In this document: piece by piece, positions 3,101-62,140 of the stretch
Layout of the letters: each line of letters begins with the position of its first letter
Numbering within the stretch: the stretch's first letter is position 1
Assembly: GCA_012295275.1 (NCBI GenBank)
Contig: CM022679.1
Coordinates: 18,178,342-18,242,341 of the forward strand
Reading direction: 5' to 3'
DNA: 64,000 nucleotides
Source: Chrysomallon squamiferum
Taxonomy: Eukaryota > Mollusca > Gastropoda > Neomphalida > Peltospiridae
Notes under the pieces: generated by a model
What the model was told of the DNA's origin: nothing
The model's database searches: none
The model's input: the letters and a program-made list of their open reading frames with translations, nothing else
Program-made: the position numbers and the translations under genes

Positions 3101-6100
3101 GGAAGCACCAAATTTAAACTGGATATACAAATGAAGTTAAGAACTTTTGTTTAGTCACATTTGTTTATAGGAAGAAAGCTTGTAGAATTTACCCTATGAA
3201 ATCAAAAAGTAATGACTGAACAGTGTTCATGCTACATGCTCATAGTTCCATTACAAGATGAAGTAATATGAAGTTCAACAGTTTTTCACAAAATGAAGTA
3301 ACAATAATGCAAAAAACTGAATGATAAGACTTCAGATTTTGCCATTCATGTAGTTTTTAATTAAAATAAGGACTTTAAACAGAAAATACATCAAGCATTC
3401 AAGTCAGGAAAAGTAGTCTATAGAATATGGTGGACCACTATCACTGATAGTATTTAGAGCACCTACACAGCATCTGTATAAATTACTTCTTAAATTATGA
3501 AATTTTTTAAATGCACTATTTTTATGGTTCCAATGTGGCAAGGCAGTCTCTCAAATGTTAAAGAAACCTTAAAACTATCATATTAAAAAATAAATAAAAT
3601 TTCATAAAGGCAAAATATGTTACTAACCATAAGGCTATTTTCTGGTGTTGCAACATGGACATCCTGACAGCTGCCTCCCCCTACAGAATAGCCATTCAAA
3701 CAGGACTTGCTTGAACTAGATACAAAACTACCAATGTGTGATGAGCCAATCTTTTCAATAGCAGCTTGTTTCAATAAACCAGACATAGCACGTGCTTCAG
3801 TTGTACTGAGGCTCTCTAGTGCAAACTCCTTCCTTTTCTCCATTCCAGAGTATTTTGAAGTAGTTGTCGGTCTCAACACAGAATCACGAAGGCCTAGGGT
3901 AATCTCCTTTTTAGCTGATGATGTAGATCGTTTGAATGTCTCAGGCATTTTCGTTGGACTTTCAGAATGGGATTCAGATTTCTTTTTAATGTTATCTTTA
4001 GATGATAGTGAAGGTCTGAAAACCTCTTTAAAATTATCTACATTCAAGTCTCTTCTGCAAGAGGCAGAAGACTGAAGCATTCTGCATGAATCTGCCAAAC
4101 TGCTCAATCTGTACACATCCTTTTTCAGTGAAGATCCTGAAGCTATACTAGATGCATCTGTATTCTTGACATCAACACTAGGTTGTTCATCATTCATAGT
4201 ACTGTCTTCATTCAATACATGCAACATTTGCCCTATTTTGACTGATGAATCTGAACAGTTCCTTGCACCATCAACAACACTTTCTATAGGTATTAATGTT
4301 TCTGAGTCACTTTTGTCTGCCACTGACTGTGTGCTATATGTACAACCAACTGGTGGTAAGCATGTATTTTTGTTCAGTGTCTGACTGCAAGGTTGTCCTA
4401 CTGCATTCGGTATTTGGCGCAGTCTCATCCTACTACTAGCTCTTGAAGAAACATTTGCCTGACCAGGTGATGGTGGTTTTGGTACCTTCTGAAATATAAA
4501 AAATAATATACAAAACAATTTCCTTATAAAACTCATAATATTAATGCAACATCTTGCTAGATGAAATTACAAAATTGAAGTGCATAGAAAAATAACTTTT
4601 TCAACACTCAAGCTTAATTTTTGATATATGTTATTAATTTACTAACAAATTTATTAATATAACAAGATGATATTTTCTAAAGTAATATATTAAAAATAGG
4701 TACTATCATTTATAAATATATAAATTTTCTTTGTATAAATCAAAAATATAAAATCACTCAATATCTAACTTTATTTCATAAACAATTTTTTATTTTTTAT
4801 TCCGTATTTCAGATTTTAAAGCTAAAACAATTTCATTTCACTGAGAAAATAAATACTTTATTAAAATTATTTAAGTTTTGGGGGTTTTTTCTGATGTATC
4901 ATACAGTAAGAATTTAGCAAATGTAAAAATGGCATCTGTGTTTTTAACTACCACCAACCTTTCTGTGAATACTGAGTTTATCCATATTAACTCGAAGTTT
5001 AGTCATTTTCTCTTTCATCTTGTCATTTTCTTCAGTCTTCTCCTTAGGAGGAGAATCATCATCCTCATCTTCATCATTAAAGTTATAAACAGAGGCACTG
5101 AAAAAAAATTAATCAGTGGCAAACAAATACAGAAAGATTTGAGTCCGTAATCATTAAAATTTGTGCTGACTTCAAAATTAACATATGCTTAATTCTAAAC
5201 TAAGCAAAAAACATTAAGAAAATTAAGAAAGATATATGCCTAGATTTGTATTTAGTTATGTTATATTTACCTGTTCAGAAAATATATGGACAATCACAGA
5301 ATATATGGACATTTTTTTTTTTTAGCTTATCTCCATCTCAACTATCTTTTTATAGTATTAATCTGCCCCTTCTTCCATGATTGACTGTCTGTTAAGATTG
5401 CAATTGATTAAGAAAATACATTTCAATAGATCTTTTAAAATTCATTAACATACTGGATACATATAAAGCATCTCCCTTCCATTTAACAATGCAAGTCTGT
5501 ATTATTTAGTATGTTTCTCCCATCAAAATATATATTTAACAGATCCAGTCTGGAACTTCCTGGACAATATTTATTTTCCTGAATGTTCAATTTTTTTTTT
5601 CTTATTCCTTTGATTCTGATACAAGCTAATACAAATGAGATAATTCAAATATGACCTTTCATATTTGAATTATCTCATTTGTATTAGCTTGTATCAGAAT
5701 TTAAGGAAAAGGTCTGTCATCAAAATATGCAAACCCTAGAAATCTGGAGTTTGTATTTGTTATGAACTAATAAAAAGAAAACTTACCTCAGAGTCTCAGA
5801 CAGTGGTGTTAATGTGCCATCACCTCGGTCCACCACACGAAAAAAATTGAGCTGGTCACCTTCACGAAACACAAGAAGAGTGACGTGCCTGTTATTAGGC
5901 AATTTATCCAAAATCTCATCTCTATTTGCCTCCATATATTCAGCCATCTCCCTGAGTGTAGAGTCTTCAACAGGAACTGCAGTTAATAAAACATTAGTAT
6001 TGAATTAACCCACTGGTATATATGATTGATGCCACAAACAACAGCTGTTTTTTTTGGTCATAAAGCTACAATTAATTCTAGCATAGAAAAAAATCAATCC

Positions 6101-10062: not shown

Positions 10063-12850
10063 CTCTACATAAATATTTTCATCTGTAAAGTTTTGTTCCA
10101 GTGTCCTGGTTTTAATCATAACAAAATTCAGTTAAAGTAAATTCTTCATGAAGGTGATAAATGCAAAAAACTAATGATATTTTTGCAGGCTAGTGATGTG
10201 AGCTGATACATTACATGATACAGTATCCATTTTATTTAAGCAGCAAACGTAATTTGGTTAATTTTTAATACTACTATAAGCAGTGGTTATCAAATGAATA
10301 ATAAATGATACATACACTGCATGCTATATTTAATTTGAGGAGGAATTTTTGTAATATACTCTCTCTTCAGCTGTCTTCAGGATCAGACAGATAACAGATT
10401 GTTTTTACTAAAATACATAATGAATATCTTGCAAGATATTTGATTTGTTTCCATACACATAACACACACTTTTTCAGGAAATTATATTACAAAATATGTA
10501 CTTTGTATTTTACACTGCACTTTTTCTAATTGCGGATGTATGAATGAATATATAACTTGTATTAATAAGAAGAAATATTTTATTTTTTATAGATTTTTAA
10601 TTTAATTAGATACCAAAAAGTTATAAATAATGAAGATCTGGCTATTTCTGATTGCTAGGTTACATTACCTTGGGTGACATAATAAGCTGGTAATTCAAAA
10701 CCGATGAAGACTTACTTAATATTTATTTAAATAAAAAACTAAAAAAGATATAGAACTGAATTACGTGATAAATATAATTTATAATGTGAAAAATATCTAA
10801 GAATTATTCTGTTCATAGAAATTATAACATAAAACATTTAAAACCATCTATATTTACAGAATTGTTAATAGCATAGTTAGTGAATCAATGGGACTTATAG
10901 GCACCTGTTTTTGGTGTTGTGGTACAATTCGAAATCTGCATAAACACACATACACACCTCCACACTGCTCTCTATTATGACTTTATATTTAATGCATTGG
11001 CATCAGTTTATCATAAAAAGTTCTAAGTAGATATCTTGCTAAATAAATGAATCTAACCAAAACAAAAAAGAAAAATAATGGCCAAATAATAATATGCAGA
11101 GAACTTTGAGGTATAAGTTATATCTGAAATGTTACAGGACAGCCACAACACATAAATTATTAAGCAATAGCAGCCAGGAATCTTGACACTGTAAACATCT
11201 GTACATAGTTTATTTACCTCTGCGAGTATTAATAGGGCCCCCTCGCATAGCCAGAACTAATCTCAGTGTTGCTCCACTGTGGATACTGTAGTCATGGAGA
11301 CAATAATCATCTTCAAGTTCTACTGACTGCCATATTAGATGTTGGTGAGAAATTGGTATACCTAAAATAATATTTTATTTAAATATTTTTAAAATAAAAA
11401 ATAAATAATAAATTTTAAAAACTTTTATGACTTTTTTTAGCAAAATGCCCTGTTAACTAATATTAACATAAACTGATCAAAAACACTATGACATTCCTTT
11501 TTTACAGTTAACAATTTAAACAATGACATCAAACTATTTTCCTTATTATACAAAAATAAGCAAAGACATGGAAACATTTTTCTTATAATTTTAAATATTA
11601 TCAGCAAACTTGCAAATGACAAATAAACTTGCAGTTTGTATCTACTCCAAATTAAAAGTGCTTATACTCGAACTTTTATTACTATTTGTTTGGATTTACT
11701 GCTAGAGCAGATAAAAAAGATTACATAAAATATCATCATCAATGGTGTCATAACCAGTATGTACGCAAGAAAGTTTACTGTACCCAAAACAAGTATAGTG
11801 GGTCTTTTCTTGCAAAAGTATATGATGGAAAAAAAAGAGGAAAAATTAGTTGATTTGACAACTTTTGATAAATGAAAGTAGATTTATATAGTTTTACATG
11901 AGCTTTTTATATCAGTATCTGCTGCTGTAAAACAAACAAAAGATGAAGCAAAATATTGAATAAACTGTCCTCTAACAATGGGAAGGCATAAACTGCAAGG
12001 TTACTGAACTTTCTTTGGAGATTCCTGAAATATTTCACTAAATGCATTCATCTTAGATATTATAATGTGGGAAATATTGATCAAATTAACAACATGAAGG
12101 AATAAACTGCAAGGTTACTGAACTTCCTTTGGAGATTCCTGAAACATTTCACTAAATGCATTCATCTTAGATATTATAGTGTGGGAAATACTGATCAAAT
12201 TAACAACACAGTCAAACAAATATTTCAAGATGTGGATTTCAAATCAGATTACATTATCACCAACATTCATTTAAATACTGTTTAAGAAAACATTTTCACA
12301 AGTGCCAGTAAATTAATATAAATTATTTTCTTCTAACTAAACTCAACTAGGTAAGTGCCACACATTAGTAACCAGGGTTAATTTATTAATAAAATGTAAT
12401 AATTATCAGTGTTTAGTATCATTCTAAATTTCTAAGATCGGTTTCACAAAATATCATTCTCTTTGTTCATTATGATAAATGCACGTATTGCTGCCAAAAA
12501 AATAATTAACTTTTACTTTGATGTACAACAAATACACACAAAGTCAACATTTTCTGCAAGAAAAGGATTTAAAATGCTATTTGATAAGCAGTCGTTAACC
12601 AATCAACATTTTCTCCAAAATAAAATTTCTATTTGTTACCACTTGCTCATGAAATCATTTATTTACAAATTGAATAAAATATTATTTATTAATGAGAAAG
12701 CTATAAAATAAAAATTCGTCTGTGTTTTATATCTACTGTTTCAGTACCTTCCAGCCTTTGTATCTTCGCTTTGACTGACATTATCGTTTCGAAAGGCGAA
12801 ACACGAAGTTCAAAGGCTGTTCCTGTCAGTGTTTCCACAAACAACTCCAT
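184..12850 (-). CDS. ZFAND4: ZFAND4 (AN1-type zinc finger protein 4), 7 coding exons, complete
   Basis: Coding exons in transcript order: 12748-12850, 11218-11361, 5787-5976, 4959-5097, 3628-4488, 841-992, 184-319. All have GT/AG borders and phases join without a break, giving 1725 nt (574 aa). Residues 1 to about 75 form a ubiquitin-like domain beginning MELFVETLTG and containing LVLAMRGGPINTRR, as in vertebrate ZFAND4. Next comes the conserved block MAEYMEANRDEILDKL and FREGDQLNFFRVVDRGDGTL, then an acidic stretch (NDEDEDDD). A 287-codon, Ser-rich, low-complexity exon follows. The C-terminal AN1 finger fits the family consensus exactly: Cys514, Cys517, Cys529, Cys531, Cys536, His539, His545, Cys547. 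The protein ends VVSAPKLPKI. The ATG at 12850 matches the family start of the Ubl domain; the same frame upstream reaches a stop with no other ATG. Compared with the human protein (from memory), the segment around KIDFHLHVLRRK between exons 3 and 4 is missing or lies in an exon I did not find. The cellular role in animals is poorly defined; a ubiquitin-linked function is inferred from the domains. Confidence 0.95.
993..3627 (-). other. ZFAND4 intron between coding exons 5 and 6
   Basis: No exon-like sequence found on either strand. A partial direct repeat built on 'ggaattcagattgc' occurs near 1211 and 1276. The stretch 2340-3420 has a less AT-rich texture that may be an old interspersed repeat, but I could not classify it. 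Confidence 0.4.
5613..5700. repeat. Perfect 42-bp inverted repeat with 4-nt loop in a ZFAND4 intron
   Basis: Arms 5613-5654 and 5659-5700 are exact reverse complements around the loop CCTT. It lies between ZFAND4 exons 3 and 4. No protein or known family was recognised. It could be a foldback duplication, a young hairpin source or an assembly artefact. Confidence 0.9.
9509..9590. repeat. Compound (AAAT)n-(GAAT)n microsatellite
   Basis: About 38 nt of AAAT units followed by about 44 nt of GAAT units, then a short run of AAT. The 66-aa reading frame on the opposite strand is only this repeat. Confidence 0.95.
10013..10060. repeat. (TG)n microsatellite
   Basis: Uninterrupted TG dinucleotide run of 48 nt inside a ZFAND4 intron. 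Confidence 0.97.
11988..12209. repeat. Tandem duplication, period about 114 bp
   Basis: Two adjacent copies beginning 'ataaactgcaagg' at 11988 and 12102, with a few substitutions (for example actttc versus acttcc). It lies within the first ZFAND4 coding intron. Confidence 0.85.
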
Positions 12851-13581: not shown

Positions 13582-13704
13582 GAACAATTATTTTTATTTT
13601 TTAATACCATTTATTTTATTTTACTTTATTTATTTATTTATTTATGGTACGTTACAGATCATTTTACAAAAAGAGAGCCACAAAACATAAATAAATAAAA
13701 CAAA

Positions 13705-13746
<42 letters not shown>

Positions 13747-13755
13747 CAAACCTAA

Positions 13756-13808
<53 letters not shown>

Positions 13809-13935
13809 TTTGTTTTATTTATTTATGTTTTGTGGCTCTCTTTTTGTAAAATGATCTGTAACGTACCATAAATAAATAAATAAATAATTAAAGTAAAATA
13901 AAATAAATGGTATTAAAAAATAAAAATAATTGTTC
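13582..13935. repeat. 354-bp near-perfect palindrome with a trinucleotide microsatellite core
   Basis: Outer arms starting 'gaacaattattttta' at 13582 mirror the sequence ending at 13935. They include the matching block 'tggctctctttttgtaaaat'. The inner parts are (ATA)n on one side and (TTA)n on the other, separated by a short 'aacaacaaacct' spacer. The arms differ by a small indel near an ATTT run. It resembles a foldback MITE whose loop expanded by microsatellite growth. Confidence 0.9.
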
Positions 13936-29292: not shown

Positions 29293-29477
29293 TTTTGTGA
29301 CCTTTGCAGAATATGTTTATTTTTATTTTTAGACGTTTCATTAAAAAAAAAAAATAATAATAATAATAATAAAATAAATTAAAATAAATAAAAAAATTCC
29401 AAAAACATAAAGACATAGTTTGGTAAGTCAAAATTTTGTAACATTTTATTTATTTGTTTATTTTAATGTTTGTTTAT

Positions 29478-29480
<3 letters not shown>
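29293..29480 (+). repeat. Direct repeat flanking the palindrome, left copy
   Basis: Shares 'gtgacctttgcagaatatg', 'tagacgtttcat', 'ggtaagt' and 'aattttgtaacattttattt' in the same order with 40566-40720. The copies differ in the A-rich middle. The family is unknown. Confidence 0.8.

Positions 29481-29530
<50 letters not shown>
29480..29530. repeat. (AAT)n microsatellite
   Basis: Pure AAT/ATA trinucleotide run of about 50 nt. Confidence 0.95.
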
Positions 29531-29976
29531 CAACTTATTGTGTAAATTAACCATACCCTGTAACTTCTTTGCTGACATTGGTGATGAATGGTCTCGGATC
29601 AGTAGAATACATGTATCATATCAGTAGGTATGTGGATAAATTTTTCAAACCCCACTAATCTGAAAATAAATAAGACAGTTGGGTAGAGCTTGTAAACCAC
29701 TTTAAAATGATACCAAGATCAAGTGAATATGTAAAAAATTAAGGAAGTAGCAGCAATTTTAAACCCCCGAAAAAGCAATTTTTTTCGTCCGATTAAACGC
29801 TATATATAGGTATGTGCAGATACTCGCGATTAGCGGCTGCGGTTTCTTACCAATTAGCTGTTCCACAGAAATCGTGTTTTGCATGAGGGGGGGCACCGTT
29901 TGTTCGCTTTTCATTGGATCGTGTTATATTCTTTCCTTGGGATTTCTGCACACAAACTCAGACGGGATATTGATAA

Positions 29977-30099
29977 ATGCTCACGATTTCTAATATTTTG
30001 ATTCCGTGGAGTTTTTCTGTGCCTACGCTGCCTTTTAGAAAATTACGAATTTTCAACACGCTTGAACCACTAAAACCAGCTACTGGACACGAACGAAAG
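29977..30099 (+). other. Possible first exon in left arm (ATG to strong splice donor)
   Basis: A 41-codon open frame begins at ATG 29977 and runs to a consensus donor (AAAG|GTAAGT). A mirror copy lies near 38575-38695 on the minus strand. Its phase does not join directly to the downstream ORF exon, so splicing to it is unproven. Confidence 0.3.
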
Positions 30100-31400
30100 G
30101 TAAGTAGACATTAACTTTGGTTTTTTATCTTATTGTCTTTAAAATTTTATCAAAAGTTATGGTTTTTTTAAATTGTTATGATTGCCTCGTGAAATATGGT
30201 ATTTTGGTCATTTCGGTGTTCGATCGCCATCGTGACACTTTTACAGAATTTTCAACATGCTACAATAACTAAAACCGGTTACGTGACACGAATGAAAAGT
30301 AGCTGGACATAATAATTAGTTTTTTATATTATTGTCTTTAAAATTTTATCAAAATGGTTGGACGCATTCAACTGTTATGATCGCCTCGTCAAAAATGGTC
30401 TGTTGGTCATTTTGGTGTTCGGTCGCCATCTTGAAACTTTTACGGAATTTTCAACATGCTACAATAACCGGTTACTGGACACGAACGAAAAGTAGCTGGA
30501 CATAATAATTAGTTTTTTATCTTACTGTCTTTAAAATTTTATCAAAAGTTATGGTTTTTTTAAATTGTTATGATCGCCTCGTGAAATATGGTCTGTGTAA
30601 TTTCGGTTTTCGATCGCCATCTTGAAACTTTTACGGAATTTTCAACATGCTACAATAACTAAAACCGGTTATGTGACACGAATGAAAAGTAGCTGGACAT
30701 AATAATTAGTTTTTTATATTATTGTCTTTAAAATTTTATCAAAATGCTTGGACGCATTCAACTGTTATGATCGCCTCGTCAAAAATGGTCTGTTGGTCAT
30801 TTTGGTGTTCGGTCGCCATCTTGAAACTTTTACGGAATTTTCAACATGCTACAATAACCGGTTACTGGACACAAACGAAAAGTAGCTGGACATAATAATT
30901 AGTTTTTTATCTTACTGTCTTTAAAATTTTATCAAAAGTTATGGTTGCATTCAATTGTTATGATCGCCTCGTGAAATATGGTCTGTGTAATTTCGGTTTT
31001 CGATCGCCATCTTGAAACTTTTACTTACGGAATTTTCAACATGCTACAATAACTAAAACCGGTTATGTGACACGAATGAAAAGAAGCTGGACATAATAAT
31101 TAGTTTTATTATCTTTGAAATTTTATGAAGCAGCTTCGAGGCTCTTAATTGTAATTTTTACCTCGTGAAATATGGTTTGTTGGCGTTATATCGCCAGTTT
31201 GAGTTTCTGTTTTTTTCTTCAAAATTACGAATGTTCAACATGCTACAGTCACTAAAACCGGTTACATGAGACGAATGAAAAGTAGTTTTTTTTATCTAAT
31301 TGTCTTTGAAATTTTGTCAAGCAGCTGAAAGCATGCTAACTAGTAAATCTAATCTTTATCTCGTCAAGCATGGTTATTTCGACGTTAGATCGCCGAAGTG
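30060..31400. repeat. Higher-order tandem repeat in left arm
   Basis: Units of about 195 bp, marked by 'ttttcaacatgctacaata' and 'agctggacataataattag', recur near 30250, 30451, 30641, 30840 and 31037. Odd and even units differ ('aaaaccggttatgtgacac' versus 'accggttactggacac'), so the true period is a dimer of about 390 bp. Outer units are more diverged. Confidence 0.9.
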
Positions 31401-31724
31401 AAAGTGTCATGGCAGACCAAACTTCCTGTATAAGGACTTACGTTTGAGAATGGATTATGCTGACTTAATACTTATTCTTCTTAAATTATCTTACATAAGA
31501 ATGATGGACAAATATGTTCCTAACAATATATTGGTATTTTCATCCATAATTGTCTCAAATCTCAAGATGTTTTAGGATTTTAAAATCATAAAGTTGACCA
31601 AACAATTATAATTTCTAAACACCAAATCAAATAAGCACTTGCTATTGTATTCTGTGTGGATTTAATTTGTATTGGTCATTCAAATTTTGCATTTCTTTTC
31701 ATATAATGTTGTTTTTTTTTTCCA

Positions 31725-32294
31725 CAGTTCCTGCAACAGATGAGTTTTTGAAAGGACACGTGCTTTATATTTACACTAGCTGTGGTAACAGTCGAGCAAC
31801 AACAGTTAGTGAATTATGTAGTCATTTTTTCACTAACTCCTACCCCTGTGTTGAGACTTTCTGATGAAGTGAAGAAAGTTGTGTACCAGTTCGATAAGTT
31901 TCGAAATCTGGCTTATGCTGTACAATTTACCAAATTTATGTGTTTATGTTCAGAAATTTTTTTATTGATTGAAAGCTGTAATCTTGAGGATGTACCCGGA
32001 AAACAAGATGAGCCCCAGCCTGGACCGAGTTGCAACCCACAATACGTTACTGCTTCCCCAGAACCACACAATCTATTGGATAGCAGTTCACTCTGTGGAG
32101 AAGATTCAGAGGAACCTGCTATTCCAATATTGACAAAACCACCCATGAAAACCAGACAAACAAAAAAATGCCTTTCATGCAAGTTATTAAATAACTCCTT
32201 AACAAATATGAGACTAAAACAGCTACAGCTTCAAAGGTCTACACACTTTGCAATCCGAGATGTGAGAGCACAGCAAAAGAAAAATAATATTTAA
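31725..32294 (+). pseudogene. Unrecognised ORF, left-arm copy, frameshifted
   Basis: Same ORF as on the minus strand at 36388-36954. Here a run of six T (31825-31830) replaces five in the right arm, which breaks the frame after VSELCSHF. The rest of the frame continues in another phase to TAA at 32294. The exon begins after a strong acceptor (tttttttttccacag). AATAAA follows at 32365-32370. Confidence 0.75.
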
Positions 32295-32364
32295 TTTTGA
32301 ATTCTAGTAGATTTTATGTACAGTTAGAAAGGTCAATTTGTCGAATATTTCAAATATCATTTTT

Positions 32365-32370
32365 AATAAA
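32365..32370 (+). promoter_or_regulatory. Poly(A) signal after left-arm ORF
   Basis: AATAAA 71 nt after the stop codon; the right arm has the mirror copy at 36312-36317. Confidence 0.6.
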
Positions 32371-32429
32371 ATATTGTGTATACATGCGTGCTTGCGTTTT
32401 AATTTTAAAATGTGCTAGAAAGATCTGGC

Positions 32430-33561
32430 GCTGTTGAAAATGATTATATTTCTATAATCTATGTTGATTATATTTTTAATAGCTTGTAGGATGCATGTTT
32501 TATTGGATGTTGTGACTTTTACTAAATATAATATGTATTCGTTCTGAAATAAACGAATTAATATTGTTTTGCCGATTACTAGCATTTGATGTTAACTATA
32601 ATCCTCTGCAATACATAAACTCGTATAATCCTTGGAGTCGACTCCAGAAAGGTGTTGCCGGTCTTTATTAGGAGCAATACAATGTGTATGTAATCATGAC
32701 AATTAAAGACACAGGTATTGTAACTGTCATTTGAAGCAGACAAAAGAATTTTCTTGGCTTTGTGTTCGTACTTCCTGTGCTTTGACAGCAAACAAAAGAT
32801 ACCTATCAATGTATCATGTGACCATCGCTGATGTTTTCTCTGATGGAGCAAATCAGCACTTGATGCAAAAAATAGCCTAAGTTTTGATCAATTTATGGTT
32901 TTATGATTAAAAAAAAATAGTGATAACATTCTATCACTACCTCTGGTACATAAATTCATGTTGTTTATATTTTAATAACCTACTGGCTGTATCATTGTAT
33001 GTTTTTCTTCAATGTTCCTATTTTTAGCTTATTCATTGTAGCACGTGCGTTGCGAGATCGCCGTGCATTGTTTCCTACCTAGTCAAGTCACCGAAGACTT
33101 TATGTGCAACTACAAATAACTGGTGCTATTTTAAATGATTATATTTCTATAATCTGTGTTGATTATATTTTTAATAACTTGTATAATGCATGTTTTATTA
33201 TATGTTATGACTTTTACTGAATATAATTATAATATGAATACGTTCTGAAATAAACAAATTAATGTTTATCTATAATCCTCTGCAATACATAAACTCGTAT
33301 AATAAATTGGAGTCTACTCCAGAAAGGTATTGCCGGTCTTAATTAGGAGCAGTACATTGTGTATGTAATCATGACACTAAAGACAGGTATGATAAGTGTC
33401 ATTTGAAGCAGACAATAGAATTTTCATGGCTTTGTGTTTGTACTTCCTGTGATTTGACAGCAAACAAAAGGTACCTATCAATGTATCATGTGACCATTGT
33501 TAATGTTTTTTCTCTGATGGAGCAAATCAAAATTTGAAGCAAAAATAGCCTAAGTTTTAAA
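32430..33561. repeat. Internal diverged duplication inside left arm
   Basis: The block 32430-32880 and the block 33120-33561 are diverged direct copies. Shared strings include 'atgattatatttctataatc', 'ttctgaaataaac' and 'gtatcatgtgaccat'. The right arm holds both in mirror order. The 90-aa reading frame at 32579-32851 (mirror 35831-36103) falls in this block and is probably not a gene. Confidence 0.85.
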
Positions 33562-34188
33562 ACTGAACACTTTATGATTTATCAGTTTATGGTTTTACGA
33601 TTAAAAAGAAAAAGTTGTACGTTTCGTATTTAATATTCTATGAATACCTCTGGTAGTTAGATTCACAGAATACATTCATTGTACTGTTTTGTAGTACAGT
33701 TTGTTATGTTTATGATTTTTAATTCGCTATTTATCGCAAGAATTTTTAAAGCAAAACACGAAGTTAGTTTATTTCTGATCGTATTCATATTATAATGTAT
33801 ATACTTTAGAAATCCGAACACTGGAGAAAACTATGCATCCCAAAAGTTACTAAAAATTAAAACATAGCTTCTATCATTTTAAATAGCAGAGGTTCTTTTA
33901 TATGTTTGTTACTCTTTTTTTCTTACTTTCTTCTTTTTTTTTTTTTTTTTTAATTTTAGGCAAGCAATATACATTTGTGGACATAACTTTTGTTATAAAT
34001 TTACACGCCATTGGTATTAATAGCGACGACATGTACGATGTTAGAAATATCGAACTTTGACCTTCCTGGGTGCTAAAAATAGCCTTGCTAAAAATAGTCG
34101 GTGTTGAGCAAAGGCGACACCGCCTTCAGATGAGCGCTTCGTAGAGCGACACCGCTTTAGCTTTAGGGATGTTCACAAAGTTCGCTTA

Positions 34189-34524
34189 CCCCCACCACGT
34201 TTAACACTCTCATACAAACTACTGATTTAACACATAACAAAAACAACATCACCATTTAAAAGAGCGCATATTAATCTGTATTTGAGTGTAATTGTTTTTC
34301 ATGTTAAATTTTACAGAAGGGATTTGGGAGGGGCGGGAAATGGACAAAATTGGCACTTTTTCCACTTACGTTTGTTAGGCTGCTGGTATCTTAATTAATA
34401 ACTTCTTTTTAATTTTTACGAATATAATCGATAGCAGAGATTGGCATTGGTCTTCTCTGAAAATTTCATCAAGAAAGCTTGATTATTAACAAAGATAGAT
34501 GGGAAAATGTTAAAATATTACTAC
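34189..34524. other. Unique spacer at the centre of the palindrome
   Basis: 336 bp with no open frame of note. A short G-rich patch 'gggaggggcgggaaa' lies near 34328. It resembles nothing I recognise. Confidence 0.8.
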
Positions 34525-36387
34525 TAAGCGAACTTTGTGAACATCCCTAAAGCTAAAGCCTTTGCTCAACACCGACTATTTTTAGCAAGGCTATTTTTAG
34601 CACCCAGGAAGGTCAAAGTTCGATATTTCTAACATCGTACATGTCGTCGCTATTAATACCAATGGCGTGTAAATTTATAACAAAAGTTATGTCCACAAAT
34701 GTATATTGCTTGCCTAAAATTAAAAAAAAAAAAAAAAAGTAAGAAAGTAAGAAAAAAAGAGTAACAAACATATAAAAGAACCTCTGCTATTTAAAATGAT
34801 AGAAGCTATGTTTTAATTTTTAGTAACTTTTGGGATGCATAGTTTTCTCCAGTGTTCGGATTTCTAAAGTATATACATTATAATATGAATACGATCAGAA
34901 ATAAACTAACTTCGTGTTTTGCTTTAAAAATTCTTGCGATAAATAGCGAATTAAAAATCATAAACATAACAAACTGTACTACAAAACAGTACAATGAATG
35001 TATTCTGTGAATCTAACTACCAGATTCACAGAACAGAGGTATTCATAGAATATTAAATACGAAACGTACAACTTTTTCTTTTTAATCGTAAAACCATAAA
35101 CTGATAAATCATAAAGTGTTCAGTTTTAAAACTTAGGCTATTTTTGCTTCAAATTTTGATTTGCTCCATCAGAGAAAACATTAACAATGGTCACATGATA
35201 CATTGATAGGTACCTTTTGTTTGCTGTCAAATCACAGGAAGTACAAACACAAAGCCATGAAAATTCTATTGTCTGCTTCAAATGACACTTATCATACCTG
35301 TCTTTAGTGTCATGATTACATACACAATGTACTGCTCCTAATTAAGACCGGCAATACCTTTCTGGAGTAGACTCCAATATATTATACGAGTTTATGTATT
35401 GCAGAGGATTATAGATAAACATTAATTTGTTTATTTCAGAACGTATTCATATTATAATTATATTCAGTAAAAGTCATAACATATAATAAAACATGCATTA
35501 TACAAGTTATTAAAAATATAATCAACACAGATTATAGAAATATAATCATTTAAAATAGCACCAGTTATTTGTAGTTGCACATAAAGTCTTCGGTGACTTG
35601 ACTAGGTAGGAAACAATGCACGGCGATCTCGCAACGCACGTGCTACAATGAATAAGCTAAAAATAGGAACATTGAAGAAAAACATACAATGATACAGCCA
35701 GTAGGTTATTAAAATATAAACAACATGAATTTATGTACCAGAGGTAGTGATAGAATGTTATCACTATTTTTTTTTAATCATAAAACCATAAATTGATAAA
35801 ACTTAGGCTATTTTTGCATCAAGTGCTGATTTGCTCCATCAGAGAAAACATCAGCGATGGTCACATGATACATTGATAGGTATATTTTGTTTGCTGTCAA
35901 AGCACAGGAAGTACGAACACAAAGCCAAGAAAATTCTTTTGTCTGCTTCAAATGACAGTTACAATACCTGTGTCTTTAATTGTCATGATTACATACACAT
36001 TGTATTGCTCCTAATAAAGACCGGCAACACCTTTCTGGAGTCGACTCCAAGGATTATACGAGTTTATGTATTGCAGAGGATTATAGTTAACATCAAATGC
36101 TAGTAATCGGCAAAACAATATTAATTCGTTTATTTCAGAACGAATACATATTATATTTAGTAAAAGTCACAACATCCAATAAAACATGCATCCTACAAGC
36201 TATTAAAAATATAATCAACATAGATTATAGAAATATAATCATTTTCAACAGCGCCAGATCTTTCTAGCACATTTTAAAATTAAAACGCAAGCACACATGT
36301 ATACACAATATTTTATTAAAAATGATATTTGAAATATTCGACAAATTGACGTTTCTAACTGTACATAAAATCTACTAGAATTCAAAA

Positions 36388-36954
36388 TTAAATATTATTT
36401 TTCTTTTGCTGTGCTCTCACATCTCGGATTGCAATGTGTGTAGACCTTTGAAGCTGTAGCTGTTTTAGTCTCATATTTGTTAAGGAGTTATTTAATAACT
36501 TGCATGAAAGGCATTTTTTTGTTTGTCTGGTTTTCATGGGTGGTTTTGTCAATATTGGAATAGCAGGTTCCTCTGAATCTTCTCCACAGAGTGAACTGCT
36601 ATCCAATAGATTGTGTGGTTCTGGGGAAGCAGTAACGTATTGTGGGTTGCAACTCGGTCCAGGCTGGGGCTCATCTTGTTTTCCGGGTACATCCTCAAGA
36701 TTACAGCTTTCCATCAATAAAAAAATTTCTGAACATAAACACATAAATTTGGTAAATTGTACAGCATAAGCCAGATTTCGAAACTTATCGAACTGGTACA
36801 CAACTTTCTTCACTTCATCAGAAAGTCTCAACACAGGGGTAGGAGTTAGTGAAAAATGACTACATAATTCACTAACTGTTGTTGCTCGACTGTTACCACA
36901 GCTAGTGTAAATATAAAGCACGTGTCCTTTCAAAAACTCATCTGTTGCAGGAAC
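36388..36954 (-). CDS. Unrecognised ORF (probable last exon), right-arm copy, intact
   Basis: The open frame extends from 37014 to the stop at 36388 (208 codons if read from the first ATG). The first part (FCFST) lies in a pyrimidine-rich acceptor tract, so the exon more likely begins at TTCCTGCAACAG near 36954. About 188 residues then follow. They start VPATDEFLKGHVLYIY and have a Lys/Asp-rich middle (DEVKKVVYQFDKFRNLAYAV). A Pro/Ser/Glu-rich linker follows, and a basic tail with a CLSC motif ends QQKKNNI. No domain was recognised. The poly(A) signal at 36312-36317 and the acceptor suggest a captured or resident cellular-type last exon. Confidence 0.5.
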   Translation of the reverse strand, partial: VPATDEFLKGHVLYIYTSCGNSRATTVSELCSHFSLTPTPVLRLSDEVKKVVYQFDKFRNLAYAVQFTKFMCLCSEIFLLMESCNLEDVPGKQDEPQPGPSCNPQYVTASPEPHNLLDSSSLCGEDSEEPAIPILTKPPMKTRQTKKCLSCKLLNNSLTNMRLKQLQLQRSTHIAIRDVRAQQKKNNI

Positions 36955-37259
36955 TGTGGAAAAACAAAACAACATTATATGAAAAGAAATGCAAAATTTG
37001 AATGACCAATACAAATTAAATCCACACAGAATACAATAGCAAGTGCTTATTTGATTTGGTGTTTAGAAATTATAATTGTTTGGTCAACTTTATGATTTTA
37101 AAATCCTAAAACATCTTGAGATTTGAGACAATTATGGATGAAAATACCAATATATTGTTAGGAACATATTTGTCCATCATTCTTATGTAAGATAATTTAA
37201 GAAGAATAAGTATTAAGTCAGCATAATCCATTCTCAAACGTAAGTCCTTATACAGGAAG

Positions 37260-38640
37260 TTTGGTCTGCCATGACACTTTCACTTCGGCGATCTAACGTC
37301 GAAATAACCATGCTTGACGAGATAAAGATTAGATTTACTAGTTAGCATGCTTGCAGCTGCTTGACAAAATTTCAAAGACAATTAGATAAAAAACTACTTT
37401 TCATTCGTCTCATGTAACCGGTTTTAGTGACTGTAGCATGTTGAACATTCGTAATTTTGAAGAAAAAAACAGAAACTCAAACTGGCGATATAACGCCAAC
37501 AAACCATATTTCACGAGGTAAAAATTACAATTAAGAGCCTCGAAGCTGCTTCATAAAATTTCAAAGATAATAAAACTAATTATTATGTCCAGCTTCTTTT
37601 CATTCGTGTCACATAACCGGTTTTAGTTATTGTAGCATGTTGAAAATTCCGTAAGTAAAAGTTTCAAGATGGCGATCGAAAACCGAAATTACACAGACCA
37701 TATTTCACGAGGCGATCATAACAATTGAATGCAACCATAACTTTTGATAAAATTTTAAAGACAGTAAGATAAAAAACTAATTATTATGTCCAGCTACTTT
37801 TCGTTTGTGTCCAGTAACCGGTTATTGTAGCATGTTGAAAATTCCGTAAAAGTTTCAAGATGGCGACCGAACACCAAAATGACCAACAGACCATTTTTGA
37901 CGAGGCGATCATAACAGTTGAATGCGTCCAAGCATTTTGATAAAATTTTAAAGACAATAATATAAAAAACTAATTATTATGTCCAGCTACTTTTCATTCG
38001 TGTCACATAACCGGTTTTAGTTATTGTAGCATGTTGAAAATTCCGTAAAAGTTTCAAGATGGCGATCGAAAACCGAAATTACACAGACCATATTTCACGA
38101 GGCGATCATAACAATTTAAAAAAACCATAACTTTTGATAAAATTTTAAAGACAGTAAGATAAAAAACTAATTATTATGTCCAGCTACTTTTCGTTCGTGT
38201 CCAGTAACCGGTTATTGTAGCATGTTGAAAATTCCGTAAAAGTTTCAAGATGGCGACCGAACACCAAAATGACCAACAGACCATTTTTGACGAGGCGATC
38301 ATAACAGTTGAATGCGTCCAAGCATTTTGATAAAATTTTAAAGACAATAATATAAAAAACTAATTATTATGTCCAGCTACTTTTCATTCGTGTCACGTAA
38401 CCGGTTTTAGTTATTGTAGCATGTTGAAAATTCTGTAAAAGTGTCACGATGGCGATCGAACACCGAAATGACCAAAATACCATATTTCACGAGGCAATCA
38501 TAACAATTTAAAAAACCATAACTTTTGATAAAATTTTAAAGACAATAAGATAAAAAACCAAAGTTAATGTCTACTTACCTTTCGTTCGTGTCCAGTAGCT
38601 GGTTTTAGTGGTTCAAGCGTGTTGAAAATTCGTAATTTTC
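37260..38640. repeat. Higher-order tandem repeat in right arm
   Basis: Mirror copy of the tandem array in the left arm, with the same alternating about-195-bp units and the same order read from the outer end inward. Confidence 0.9.
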
Positions 38641-38870
38641 TAAAAGGCAGCGTAGGCACAGAAAAACTCCACGGAATCAAAATATTAGATATCGTGAGCA
38701 TTTATCAATATCCCGTCTGAGTTTGTGTGCAGAAATCCCAAGGAAAGAATATAACACGATCCAATGAAAAGCGAACAAACGGTGCCCCCCCTCATGCAAA
38801 ACACGATTTCTGTGGAACAGCTAATTGGTAAGAAACCGCAGCCGCTAATCGCGATATCTGCACATACCTA

Positions 38871-40380
38871 ATATCAGTCACTTTTTTATGCATTTCCACA
38901 TTAATATTGGTGTGCTACTTATTACTATTTAGTTGTTTTGTTGTTGTTGTTAAATTGTGAGATATGTTTATTACATTTTAATTTTAATTAGGTATCAACT
39001 TCTGCTGAACAAGCGCAGGAATTTGTTACCTGTGTTTAACAATGCTGGTATTATATACTATATCATGATAAAAAAAAAAATATATAATCATTACAGCTAT
39101 GACAAATTAAACATAATTATTCTAATGAAACAAACTGTAAAATTCACATTTAAAATTTTCTATTCAGATTACAATATTCTAAATCCTTAAGAAAATGCAT
39201 GGAACAACTTTTGGCCTTTTAATTCTTTCTGAAAGCAGTTTAACTGAGATTTTGTGCTCTTTTTCCCTACTATGATTTTTTTAAATTTTTTTATCAGAAA
39301 ATGATTGTATGCAGTAACTTAGTTTCTAGTTAAAGAAACTGATTTAAGTTAACCACCTTCAGAAGCCTAAAAGTAAACTTCTTGTAAATTCGATGTAGCA
39401 TTATTTATTTTTGGTGTATTAAAATAAATGAAATGATTTAAAAAAAAAAAAAAAAAAAAAATGAAAAAGTGTTCATTTACTAGCAGAAGTACCTGATACT
39501 GTTTTATAGAAACAATAGCTTTTGGCCTGTTTTAGAGTTCATTATTTATGTGTCAAGCATTTTTATTTCATGACATCTGTTATTGGTTTATTTAGACTAT
39601 GAGTTGTAAATAATTGTTTCATAAAATGTTTACTTATTCAGAATTATAAATTCCTCAAACCAGTTTATTTATGTACTATGATATTCACATAATGCTTCTA
39701 TCTTTATATGGTAATATTATAAGTATGATGTTTGGAGTAACACTAGAAAATTGTCTTTTTATTTTGTTTGTCATCTGAGTTGGAAAGTGATGAACATGGC
39801 TATAATTATTTGCAGTTTATGTTGTTGCTTTTTATTATTATTATTACTTTTTACATTTTTTTTAGTTTGTATATCATTTATATATACATGTCACTGTATG
39901 TGTCAAATAAACTATTTATAAATAATATTTACCTTTATGTTACAAAGCTGTAACTTATATGACTACATGCATACATACATATAATTGCAGCATTGTTACA
40001 TTATTTTATTAACACTGTAGTTAGGAATTTTTAATCTTACTATTGTAATTTTGTTATTTTTGTAGTAAAATTTTAGTAATATACTTTCAAGTAAACTCTA
40101 AGAAGGCATATTGTAAACATAAACATTAATTTTATGAATAACTCATGTGAATTATGCAACAGCTAGGTTTGTTATAAGTTCTTTTGACAGCCTGACGATA
40201 ATAAATGTCTTTATTTCAATTTACCTGAGGACAGCTGACAGTTGTACCTGTTTGAGATTACTAACAGTGACAGCAATATATGAAGACATAAATTATTTAA
40301 GATAGCCAAGAGCAAAATAACTGTTAGAGCATTACTTGGAAATAATCTTACTGTAAAAGTAGGTAATGCTTTTCTTTTAT
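38871..40380. other. Gene-free DNA between palindrome and SLC9B copy B
   Basis: AT-rich sequence with an A homopolymer near 39441 and no exon, transposon end or RNA gene that I can support. Confidence 0.4.
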
Positions 40381-40565: not shown

Positions 40566-40720
40566 TTTTGTGACCTTTGCAGAATATGTTTATTTTCATT
40601 TTTAGACGTTTCATAAAAAAAAAATAATAAAAATAAAAAAAAGAACATAAAGACATATTTTGGTAAGTTAAAATTTTGTAACATTTTATTTATTTATTTA
40701 TTTTAATGTTTGATTATTTA
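40566..40720 (+). repeat. Direct repeat flanking the palindrome, right copy
   Basis: Same-orientation copy of 29293-29480; together the two copies bracket the palindrome. Confidence 0.8.
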
Positions 40721-41649
40721 TTAAATATATTTGTGTATTAAATAAATATTAACTTTAATAAATAGTTTCTAAGATACAACCTACAAGTTTGGAATCCCTA
40801 TCTCTATATATTTATGTTTTATTTGATGTAGTATCTATGTATAAATGTTGTATTTTCATTAATAGCTTCATTAATTTAATACTACTTATTAAAATATTTA
40901 AAAAACTAAAAGAATCCCTCCCCCCCAAAAAAAAAATTAATAAAAAAAAAGAACCAGCATTCACTTATTGTTGATATTAATTTTTAACTGAACAAAACCC
41001 ATTTATTATTATTATTATTATTATTATTTAAAAAAAAATAATAATAAAAAAAATCAAAGAGGAAGTCATTGTTTATTAAATGAAATAAAATGTTATAATA
41101 TAATATAAAATAAAATAAAAAAGAACAAGAAAGGAAAAAGATCCTTTTTATGGTGTTATTTAGTTTTAAAAGGTTGCTTACATATACTTTAGCAATAGCA
41201 ACTATAACATTTTTGACAGCACTTTATTTTGGTAATTTAACTAAATATGATACAGGTTGAAGTATAATTTTCATTTTTAGCTATTTAAAGTTGTGAACTT
41301 AAGTAAATATTTTTAAATGTTGAAAAAATTATTTACTAACATATTTGAAAAAGTAGTATTAAAATAATATGATCAGCAAGTTTCTGTATTTGGAATGCAG
41401 TGTATTTATATCAGGAGAGGCAAAAACCCCACAAAAAAACCATACTAGTTTAGCATCAATTAATTTTTAGAAAATATTGGAGGAAAACATTGGAATAAAT
41501 TGATGAAGTTAATTGCCCAGGATTAAAAAAGAATAAAACAAATCAGTACTAATCATTTATTTAATATTGTAATAAACCATAATGTTTTAATAGGTAATGC
41601 CTTTTCTTTTTTTCATACTTTATTTATAGGTGCACCATTCAAAAAAATT

Positions 41650-59447: not shown

Positions 59448-59653
59448 AATATGGAAAACTTCTGGAGTTACATTATGAAAAAACATTGAAAAATTGTGCC
59501 TTATCCCACCAGTTTACTTGATTTTTCTAAATCCTTATAAAATAAATATCAATATGGAAAACTTCTGGAGTTACATTATGAAAAAACATTGAAAAATTGT
59601 GCCTTTTCCCACCAGTTTACTTGATTTTTCTAAATCCTTATAAAATAAATATC
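59448..59653. repeat. Tandem duplication, period 103 bp
   Basis: Two adjacent copies starting 'aatatggaaaacttctgg' at 59448 and 59551. One substitution was noticed ('ccttatccc' versus 'ccttttccc'), so the duplication is recent. Confidence 0.95.
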
Positions 59654-62140
59654 AATAGCTTATGTAACAGCAAATGCAGAATTGTATACTGAACAAAATA
59701 ATCCAGTCTGTATATTTCTAGGGAAAAGTGGTTGAAAATTATAATCATTTTACTGATATCTATAAAGATGGCTACAAAATAGCTCAAAACATACTAATTG
59801 GAAATGTTTGTCTGATTTTGGGAATTTCAGACAATGGACTAACTAAAAATCCACATTAAATGTTTTCACTAGTTTGGTACCCACATTCACCTAACTATTG
59901 GACTATGCAGTCTGTTGTTTAAAAAACTGTAGTAAAGTTTTAATAATGTTACCTTAACATTAGGAAGACCAGGACTGGTTCTCTACATTTTACATTTTTG
60001 GACTCTGGTTTAGATCTAACAATAAAGATATATACAATAGAATGAAAAAGATATAGTTTAACAGCATAGACAAACACTAAAGATATAGAACGAAAATGAC
60101 TAAGTCAATGTCAGCTAGGCCCATTAAATAAACAGTTAGCTCTTATAATCTGTATTGTAGTTCAAAGGAGTCTGTGCATAATGCCAGTAATTTAGAAACT
60201 TTTCTCTTCTACATGGCTGTTCAAGTGCAGCAAAATATTCAGTTTTCAATCATTTATTTATGTAATATTCAAAAAGTGCCATTTCTTTACATGGCTTATT
60301 TCTTTTAACAGTTTTCTAGAAGTCCAAATAGTTTTTATTACTTTACTCCTGAGAAAAATTCCTAAATTCAACACATTATTGCCAATTTCATAACTTTGTA
60401 GAGATTCAATTTAAATGTATTGGCTTTGGTTAATTTACCACATTTGTTACTGTCTGCTGAAATCCCCTAATTAAAAGTACATGAAACAAAATATACTGAC
60501 ATCACCTAACACGTGCATCCTTTAAATAATGATAATATTTAAACAAACAAAAAAATTAAATTAAATAAAAAATAAAAATAAACAACAACAAAATAACATC
60601 TATTAATGATATTTCACAATCTTAAAATTTAATAAACAAATAAAAAATAAATAATTTGAAACATAAAAAGTACGTTTATAAATTTTTGATTGCCCAGAAT
60701 AGTTCAGCTAAAAAATATTTGGCAAACATAAAACATACCTGAAATAAGTATTTATAGTTTTAACAGCAGTCTTATCATAAATAAGCTTCCAGGTCTGACT
60801 AGCAACATGTTTTTAACATTGTCCATAACAATAATCATTAGATATAATTAAAAATGTCAAGGATTAGAATATCAGCAATTATAATACCAATTTTATGAAT
60901 TTTTATTTATTTTAAACTTCTACAATCATATTTAATTATTATTATTTTAAAGTTATTAATATTTTCAATTATTCACATAAAGTATTTGCAGAGAATTCTT
61001 ATTGCAGATATTTCCTAACTATGGCATAGACAGTTTCTCATTCCTAATATAATAGAGTTTGATCTTCACTAATGAATCTATCTGTAATTTCAATTTCCAT
61101 TGCCACTGCACCTTACTACTGCACATTGTTTTGATTGCACTAGATGTTTTTACATGTTGGTGCACTCTATAAGACACAGGCAGGCAGTTCCTGTTTATTT
61201 TTCTGTATTTATTACTATCTTACTTAGCTGTGAAATTAAAGCACTGTACATTATCCATTCAACAAAAAGAAGAAAAAAAAACATACAAAAAAACAACATT
61301 AGTCTACTTAGTTTATTAAAATTTACTTGTTCTTCCTTTAATGTTTCTTTTCCTGCATATTTATTTTAATACTGTGATAAGTCAGTTATTACCTATAAGT
61401 GATCGTTTTGTGATCTGGTATTTTCACTGCCTCTTTACAGAAAGCTCCTGTATATATACGTCTTAATTGTGTTATGTAGGTACTAAAATAATTTAATATT
61501 ATTTCAATTTTTTTCTTCCACTATCTTTCAAAATAAGAAATATGAAAGTAAAAATTTACTAATATATCATGAAAAAAAGGTAGATATGTATTTCTAGTGA
61601 GATAGGGAAGAAGAGAAGTTTAATAGATTATTAACTGTTGATCATATTCCAAAATATAAAGACATTTTCTTAATTTAAAGCTGTTATGCATATTTCAAAA
61701 ATAATTTTATATGTATGTGTGACTACAAAAAAGTTGGATTGTAAAGCACAGAATTAATTACCATAAAAAGTGCTATTTTTGCATTGTATTTGATAAACTG
61801 AGATTTTTCTGTGTAAAGTTATTTTTAAAGTGTATAAACACACACCACACACACAGAGATGAACACATAATTTTTTTTTTTTTTTCACCTTTTGGATATT
61901 TATTTGTATTAGTATTTATTTTTTATTTGTTGCTTTTTACAGAGAGAAGATAATCCTAAACCAAAAGTTATCTATGAATATTATTATCACAGCCATTGTG
62001 ATACCTGTTCTGGAGCATTGGTTGCAATGAAAAAAACTGTGAGGTGGGACTGAACTTAATTATAACTATCACATACCTGTCACATTAACCATCAGGTTTT
62101 ATTATGTTCACCACTGTTATGCAATTTTTTAAAATAACAA
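59654..62140. other. 3' flank of the SLC35D3-like gene
   Basis: No exon recognised. A candidate minus-strand poly(A) signal lies at 61915-61920, about 220 nt after the SLC35D3-like stop. Short CA and T runs occur near 61840-61885. Confidence 0.4.

What the first reader, a model, noticed from the sequence alone, without database searches (positions are those of the whole stretch)
29807..38870. 9-kb near-perfect palindrome between two antiporter paralogues
Arms of about 4.35 kb are reverse complements over nearly their whole length, with a 336-bp unique centre. Outer ends match precisely (TAGGTATGTGCAGATA). Each arm is built of tandem subrepeats plus an ORF. This is the architecture of Foldback-type elements, but with unusually long arms and with cargo. 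No transposase is visible, so the mobilising enzyme is unknown. It could be a new Foldback-like family or a locus-specific inverted duplication.
Basis: partly seen in the sequence, partly recalled or inferred. Interest (0 to 1): 0.88.

Follow-up and report, generated by a model that had tools for sequence, protein, structure and literature searches.

The report
Transposon nested inside its own twin
A 9-kb mirror-image stretch of an animal chromosome turns out to be one copy of a cut-and-paste transposon that jumped, in reverse, into another copy of the same transposon and then lost the middle, a simple route to structures that look like 'Foldback' elements.

Summary
It is best explained neither as a Foldback element with 4.35-kb terminal repeats nor as a local inverted duplication.

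The mobile unit starts earlier, at 29625. A 182-bp opposite end (29625-29806) belongs to it, and 29625-38870 is flanked by a perfect 7-bp target duplication, ATATCAG. The genome gave 25 further arm-end hits (a lower bound). Solo copies have only about 10-bp terminal repeats (TAGGTATGTG); 12 of 20 fetched loci show perfect 7-bp duplications.

The window holds two copies. Copy X inserted in reverse into copy Y at a CTATATA site 182 bp from Y's end. About 576 bp at the axis was then lost, leaving X's first 4.7 kb facing Y. That site reads uninterrupted in 12 of 13 other loci checked. Another locus keeps an undeleted nest at the same site. X shares 5 derived bases with a third copy, against 1 shared with Y.

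The 'cargo ORF' is a truncated piece of the family's own transposase, whose candidate D-D-CxxH-E core has no Pfam match above cut-off. The central junction is unique, so the palindrome itself has not spread.

The parts
29618..29624 (.). 7-bp target-site duplication ATATCAG, left copy
   Evidence: identical to 38871-38877; two random 7-mers of the window agree with frequency 0.000275 in 200000 draws
29625..29806 (-). B-end of host copy Y, terminus TAGGTATGTGGATAAA; identical over 182 bp to the B-end of L009
29800..29806 (.). CTATATA site in Y's B-subterminal region into which X inserted; the second duplication copy is missing
   Evidence: uninterrupted CGCTATATAAGTC in 12 of 13 other loci checked, with one change (CTATGTA) in the 13th, L029; same site used in L010
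29807..34188 (+). Left arm, copy X from its A terminus
34189..34524 (+). 336-bp centre: part of X (to about 34523); the same stretch occurs once in solo copies that keep it
34523..34526 (.). Central deletion junction J2: X sequence ending ATTACTA, one unexplained C, then Y sequence TAAGCGAAC; about 576 bp missing against an intact nest
   Evidence: one genomic match with up to 2 mismatches
34525..38870 (-). Right arm, copy Y, ending at its A terminus
30043..31285 (+). Tandem array in X, units of about 199 bp
37394..38635 (-). Same array in Y
31728..32294 (+). Truncated transposase segment in X, frame broken by one extra T near 31825
36388..36954 (-). Truncated transposase segment in Y, 188 codons open; corresponds to residues 78-264 of the L029 frame, without the start, and ends ...RAQQKKNNI where a 2.2-kb internal deletion begins
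34114..34153 (+). 40 bp kept in X, L009 and the ten other copies aligned, deleted in Y
38871..38877 (.). 7-bp target-site duplication ATATCAG, right copy

Best explanation
A cut-and-paste DNA transposon family with about 10-bp terminal repeats (TAGGTATGTG) and 7-bp target duplications inserted copy Y between the two SLC9B genes. Y lies in minus orientation with its B-end at 29625. A second, closely related non-autonomous copy X then transposed in the opposite orientation into the CTATATA site 182 bp inside Y's B-end. That gave a nest with about 4.7-kb inverted arms around a loop of about 189 bp. A deletion of about 576 bp at the axis, sealed by end joining with one unexplained base, removed X's B-end, the internal target duplication and Y's inner end. 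The present 4.35-kb arms and 336-bp loop remain. Shown: outer duplication, multicopy family, undisturbed site in other copies, an undeleted nest elsewhere, unique central junction. Inferred: order of events, size of the intact nest, end joining, and mobilisation in trans by a transposase of the L029 or L032 type.
For: Perfect 7-bp duplication around 29625-38870. Solo copies read A-end, arm, spacer, 26 bp, B-end; 12 of 20 fetched loci have perfect 7-bp duplications. The X/Y junction falls exactly on the transposon terminus TAGG. The target reads uninterrupted in 12 of 13 other loci checked. L010 holds a complete 4506-bp copy inverted within a short family member at the same site, with a 6 of 7 duplication. 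Where two of X, Y and L009 share a derived base, the pair is X+L009 at 5 sites, Y+L009 at 1 and X+Y at 1; FastTree puts X with L009 (support 0.919). J2 occurs once in the genome.
Against: The internal duplication expected on X's far side is missing, so the deletion is inferred. One-ended joining of X's A-end would leave the same final sequence. One site groups Y with L009 and one groups X with Y, so gene conversion between arms is possible. Of the 5 X+L009 sites, one is in the tandem array with only 5 other copies comparable, and at one a further copy has the same base; the tree support is moderate. 8 of 20 loci show no perfect duplication. No raw reads were examined.
Confidence: 0.88

Rival explanations
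1. In-situ inverted duplication: one resident copy was copied onto itself by template switching or gap repair from the other end, as proposed for TIR expansion in Galileo.
For: Arms are 99.7% alike at comparable sites; Galileo 2RT copies recruit internal sequence into their repeats (passages of PMC3573991).
Against: X shares 5 derived sites with L009 against 1 shared with Y. The inner junction falls exactly on the terminus TAGG, at a site where another complete copy inserted in L010.
Confidence: 0.06
2. A true Foldback-like mobile unit in which the 9-kb palindrome moves as such.
For: Both outer ends carry family termini and the whole unit has a perfect 7-bp duplication.
Against: J2 is found once in 404.6 Mb with up to 2 mismatches; the copies with perfect duplications elsewhere are solo, with about 10-bp terminal repeats.
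Confidence: 0.04
3. Assembly or library artefact.
For: Long palindromes are prone to misassembly (general knowledge); reads were not available.
Against: The arms differ at 12 substituted sites plus indels of 13 and 40 bp, flanks are unrelated, the outer duplication is exact, and part of the differences are shared with real copies elsewhere.
Confidence: 0.02

Closest known systems
Nested or 'double' Ds elements of maize (Ac/Ds, hAT)
   Same: One non-autonomous copy nested in another of the same system. Passages of PMC3260210 say nesting is rarer for Ds, probably because nested Ds acquire chromosome-breaking properties. That the classical double Ds is an inverted nest is recalled, not read. Ac/Ds termini C/TAGGGATGAAA resemble TAGGTATGTG.
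   Different: Ac/Ds makes 8-bp duplications, here 7 bp; here the axis is deleted; no shared transposase domain was found.
Galileo (P superfamily), 2RT copies
   Same: 7-bp duplications, tandem repeat of about 210 bp (here about 199 bp), long inverted arms in non-autonomous copies (passages of PMC3573991).
   Different: Galileo repeats average 668 bp across copies; here solo copies have about 10-bp repeats and the arms are two nested copies.
Tetris, a Foldback element of Drosophila virilis
   Same: About 220-bp internal tandem repeats in long inverted arms, no transposase (passages of PMC4079207).
   Different: 8-10-bp duplications; arms up to 1,735 bp, in three complete copies; here one palindrome.
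MULEs with multiple TIRs in tomato
   Different: They saw no internal duplication and mostly tandem repeats; here L010 preserves the undeleted state.

Membership tests
Foldback-type element | long TIRs present in family copies | tested here: not met
   Solo copies with perfect duplications have about 10-bp terminal repeats
Foldback-type element | tandem subrepeats within both arms | tested here: met
   7 units per arm, but solo copies carry the array at the A-end only
Nested inverted transposon pair | outer target duplication intact | tested here: met
   ATATCAG twice
Nested inverted transposon pair | inner copy flanked by its own target duplication | tested here: not met
   only the left CTATATA remains in the window; the far side is missing. 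L010 has 6 of 7
Nested inverted transposon pair | undisturbed target site in other copies | tested here: met
   CGCTATATAAGTC in 12 of 13 loci checked, one change in L029
hAT superfamily | hAT-type transposase domain | tested here: inconclusive
   no Pfam family above its curated cut-off; D77, D153, CxxH 178-181 and E302 invariant in 4 rows, three of which are 93% or more alike; the Dada paper gives DDE plus C/DxxH for hAT, Kolobok, P, MuDR and Dada
hAT superfamily | 8-bp duplications (5-7 bp in hAT5, hAT6, hAT7) | tested here: inconclusive
   7 bp; hAT7 described in fungi
P superfamily / Galileo | THAP domain in the transposase | tested here: not met
   no THAP or other Pfam match above cut-off in L029 or L032 frames; that Galileo's transposase has a THAP domain:
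Dada | insertion into snRNA or tRNA genes, no TIRs | tested here: not met
   short TIRs and varied 7-bp targets; no Rfam match in the window; feature
PIF/Harbinger-ISL2EU-Spy | 0-3-bp duplications | tested here: not met
   7 bp; feature

The most novel reading that the evidence does not exclude
The transposase (1014-aa open frame in L032: candidate D-D-CxxH-E core, a coiled-coil-like N-terminal region by eye, possible Agenet-like C-terminus) belongs to an undescribed superfamily with TAGGTATGTG ends, 7-bp CTNNNAG-like targets and a self-insertion hotspot in its B-end. Inverted self-nesting is then a recurrent way in which such elements turn into Foldback-like palindromes.
Probability: 0.18. 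Interest if true: 0.65.

Novelty: new variant of a known kind. Interest (0 to 1): 0.45.

Why it matters
The literature seen here explains Foldback-like structures mainly by growth of terminal repeats within one element. This locus shows another route with its steps still visible: inverted self-nesting, then loss of the axis. An undeleted nest at the same site sits on another contig of the same genome. That makes the question of whether Foldback-like elements are collapsed nests testable in any genome with many copies. It also warns that a near-perfect 9-kb palindrome with intact outer target duplication need not be an in-situ duplication or a mobile palindrome.

Tried and rejected
First readings of the ends (TA or ATA duplications; ISL2EU- or Tc1-like) were dropped once the true left end at 29625 and the 7-bp duplications were seen. 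A first reading of the ORF as a spliced last exon was dropped: the supposed acceptor lies inside the longer L029 frame.

The arm ORF found no significant relative in Pfam, PDB, viral contigs or the 5.8-billion-protein set. Its identity came from L029.

The inner inverted-repeat sequence, the subrepeat and the terminus had no exact match in viral contigs, nor the subrepeat in GTDB contigs. No transposase relative was confirmed in viral or GTDB contigs.

Two AlphaFold jobs failed to give usable models (mean pLDDT 40.3 and 39.2). Foldseek on the second gave no match at E 0.001 or better and is not used. A profile search of PDB gave one irrelevant hit at E 0.49.

The B|A junction pattern with up to 2 mismatches gave 5 matches (3 in the reversed control): the window, the two C14 loci, a C10 hit that is a (TATG)n microsatellite, and a C11 hit in L025, where the A-end is not preceded by a B-end. 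L011 and L010 are 98.1% identical over 3.85 kb spanning flank, junction and the first kilobase of the inserted copy, so they count as one nesting event. In the duplication scan, L010 also gave one perfect 7-bp pair between degenerate non-family ends, taken as chance.

A genome-wide census of termini and of the CTATATA site was not obtained (tool busy).
Full report
OBSERVATION. Self-comparison confirms a palindrome with arms 29807-34188 and 34525-38870 and a 336-bp centre. Substitutions are 0.28% of 4333 comparable sites. Tandem units of about 199 bp (7 per arm), a 470-bp direct duplication and an open stretch of 188 codons (intact in the right arm only) are mirrored in register. The flanking genes are SLC9B2-like. 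Among 49 matches of an SLC35D-like exon elsewhere in the window, the named ones include Mytilus, Batillaria and Dreissena, and, lower down, a hemichordate and a starfish, so a mollusc or other lophotrochozoan is likely. The window is on contig C15 of a 404.6-Mb, 22-contig assembly.

COPIES ELSEWHERE. A 301-bp query over the left boundary gave 43 matches; 40 of 108 candidates were scored, so this is a lower bound. 27 contain arm-end sequence (two are the window's own arms). 16 contain only the supposed flank 29700-29806. For several pairs that flank lies 2-5 kb from an arm end in opposite orientation, so it is the other end of the same element. Twenty 10-kb stretches were fetched and three more that extend or overlap them.

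THE FAMILY. Solo copies read A-end (from 29807), arm, spacer to 34523, 26 bp, then the reverse complement of 29806-29625, with internal deletions or additions in many. Both ends begin TAGGTATGTG, with one change in L022. 12 of the 20 loci show a perfect 7-bp duplication (L009, L012, L013, L014, L015/L029, L016, L017, L018, L022, L024, L026, L027); 8 do not (L010, L011, L019, L020, L021, L023, L025, L028). These elements are 1.2-7.7 kb; the short members L024, L026 and L027 share the B-end but have another A-end. Targets lean to C at position 1 (11 of 14) and T at position 2 (9 of 14) (the 14 are the 12, the window and L010X). The window unit is 29625-38870, 9246 bp, with ATATCAG on both sides.

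THE ORF. L029 (7717 bp) has a 770-aa open frame followed, in another frame, by 273 aa. The window's right-arm segment matches residues 78-264 of that frame at 93%. It lacks the start and is cut off by a 2.2-kb internal deletion ending ...RAQQKK|NNI. A whole-genome search gave 72 matches (58 of 223 candidates scored), among them an uninterrupted 1014-aa frame 50% identical to the query (L032). Four rows share invariant D77, D153, C178-x-x-H181 and E302, but three of them are 93% or more alike and many other columns are invariant too. The paper on Dada gives DDE plus C/DxxH for hAT, Kolobok, P, MuDR and Dada (passages). Naming these residues catalytic, and the protein a transposase, is inference from this pattern and from its place inside the mobile element. 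No Pfam model reached its cut-off, and PDB gave nothing useful.

HOW THE PALINDROME AROSE. In an intact minus-strand copy, the B-end (29625-29806) is followed by 26 bp, the spacer and the arm. In the window it is followed directly, after CTATATA, by the A terminus of a plus-strand copy. Of 13 other loci checked, 12 read CTATATAAGTC there without a break and L029 has one change. L010 shows a complete 4506-bp copy inserted in inverted orientation at this same position of a short family member, followed by the rest of that member; the duplication is CTATATA/ATATATA, 6 of 7. Its host copy is of a different type and its inserted copy differs from X by 1.14%, so I take it as an independent event. 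L011 is a segmental duplicate of it. L025 shows a short member inserted in an A-end, so nesting within the family is not confined to this site. At the axis, X stops 208 bp before its own end and Y resumes about 361 bp inside its CTATATA site, measured on L014. With the lost 7-bp copy this is about 576 bp.

TWO COPIES, NOT ONE DUPLICATED. Against ten other copies, X and L009 share 5 derived substitutions that Y lacks; Y and L009 share 1; X and Y share 1. One of the 5 lies in the tandem array with only 5 other copies comparable, and at another a further copy has the same base. X differs from L009 by 0.27% and from Y by 0.28%, and Y from L009 by 0.48%. The tree support for X+L009 is 0.919, moderate. 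The 40 bp missing in Y is present in X, L009 and the ten others; a 390-bp array expansion is seen in L009 alone. If X had been made from Y in place, L009 would have to descend from X while X was still complete, which also needs a complete X.

MOBILITY NOW. The central junction matches once in the genome with up to 2 mismatches, control 0, so this palindrome has not multiplied in this assembly. Whether it can be mobilised is unknown. Its outer ends are one A and one B terminus, as in solo copies, so it may in principle still be recognised.

LIMITS. No reads were seen. Genome searches score only the best candidates and often failed to answer. The catalytic core was not searched in the large protein set. 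Superfamily and novelty therefore stay open; no claim is made that the family is absent from print or from Repbase. Papers were seen only as search listings or passages, as stated with each.

Noticed in passing
window 13582-13935: A 354-bp near-perfect hairpin (about 95% self-complementary), MITE-like; no target duplication evident in the 30-bp flanks printed.
   Followed up: partly
window 5601-5711: A 111-bp hairpin, about 91% self-complementary.
   Followed up: no
window 29293-29484 and 40566-40724: Direct repeat of about 90% identity on either side of the palindrome, just outside the element; origin not worked out.
   Followed up: no
window 59448-59657 and 11973-12208: Two-copy tandem duplications with periods of 103 and 114 bp, 99% and 93% identical.
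   Followed up: no
G000 contig C13, about 0.5-8.2 Mb: Many of the 72 transposase matches cluster here, often with stop codons; may mark a region of low recombination.
   Followed up: no
L029 273-aa frame: Weak Agenet-like match (E 0.073, below cut-off) at the C-terminus of the transposase-like protein: a possible chromatin-reader tail.
   Followed up: no
L025 4764-6578: A short family member nested in the A-end of a longer one, with an imperfect (6 of 7) duplication.
   Followed up: partly
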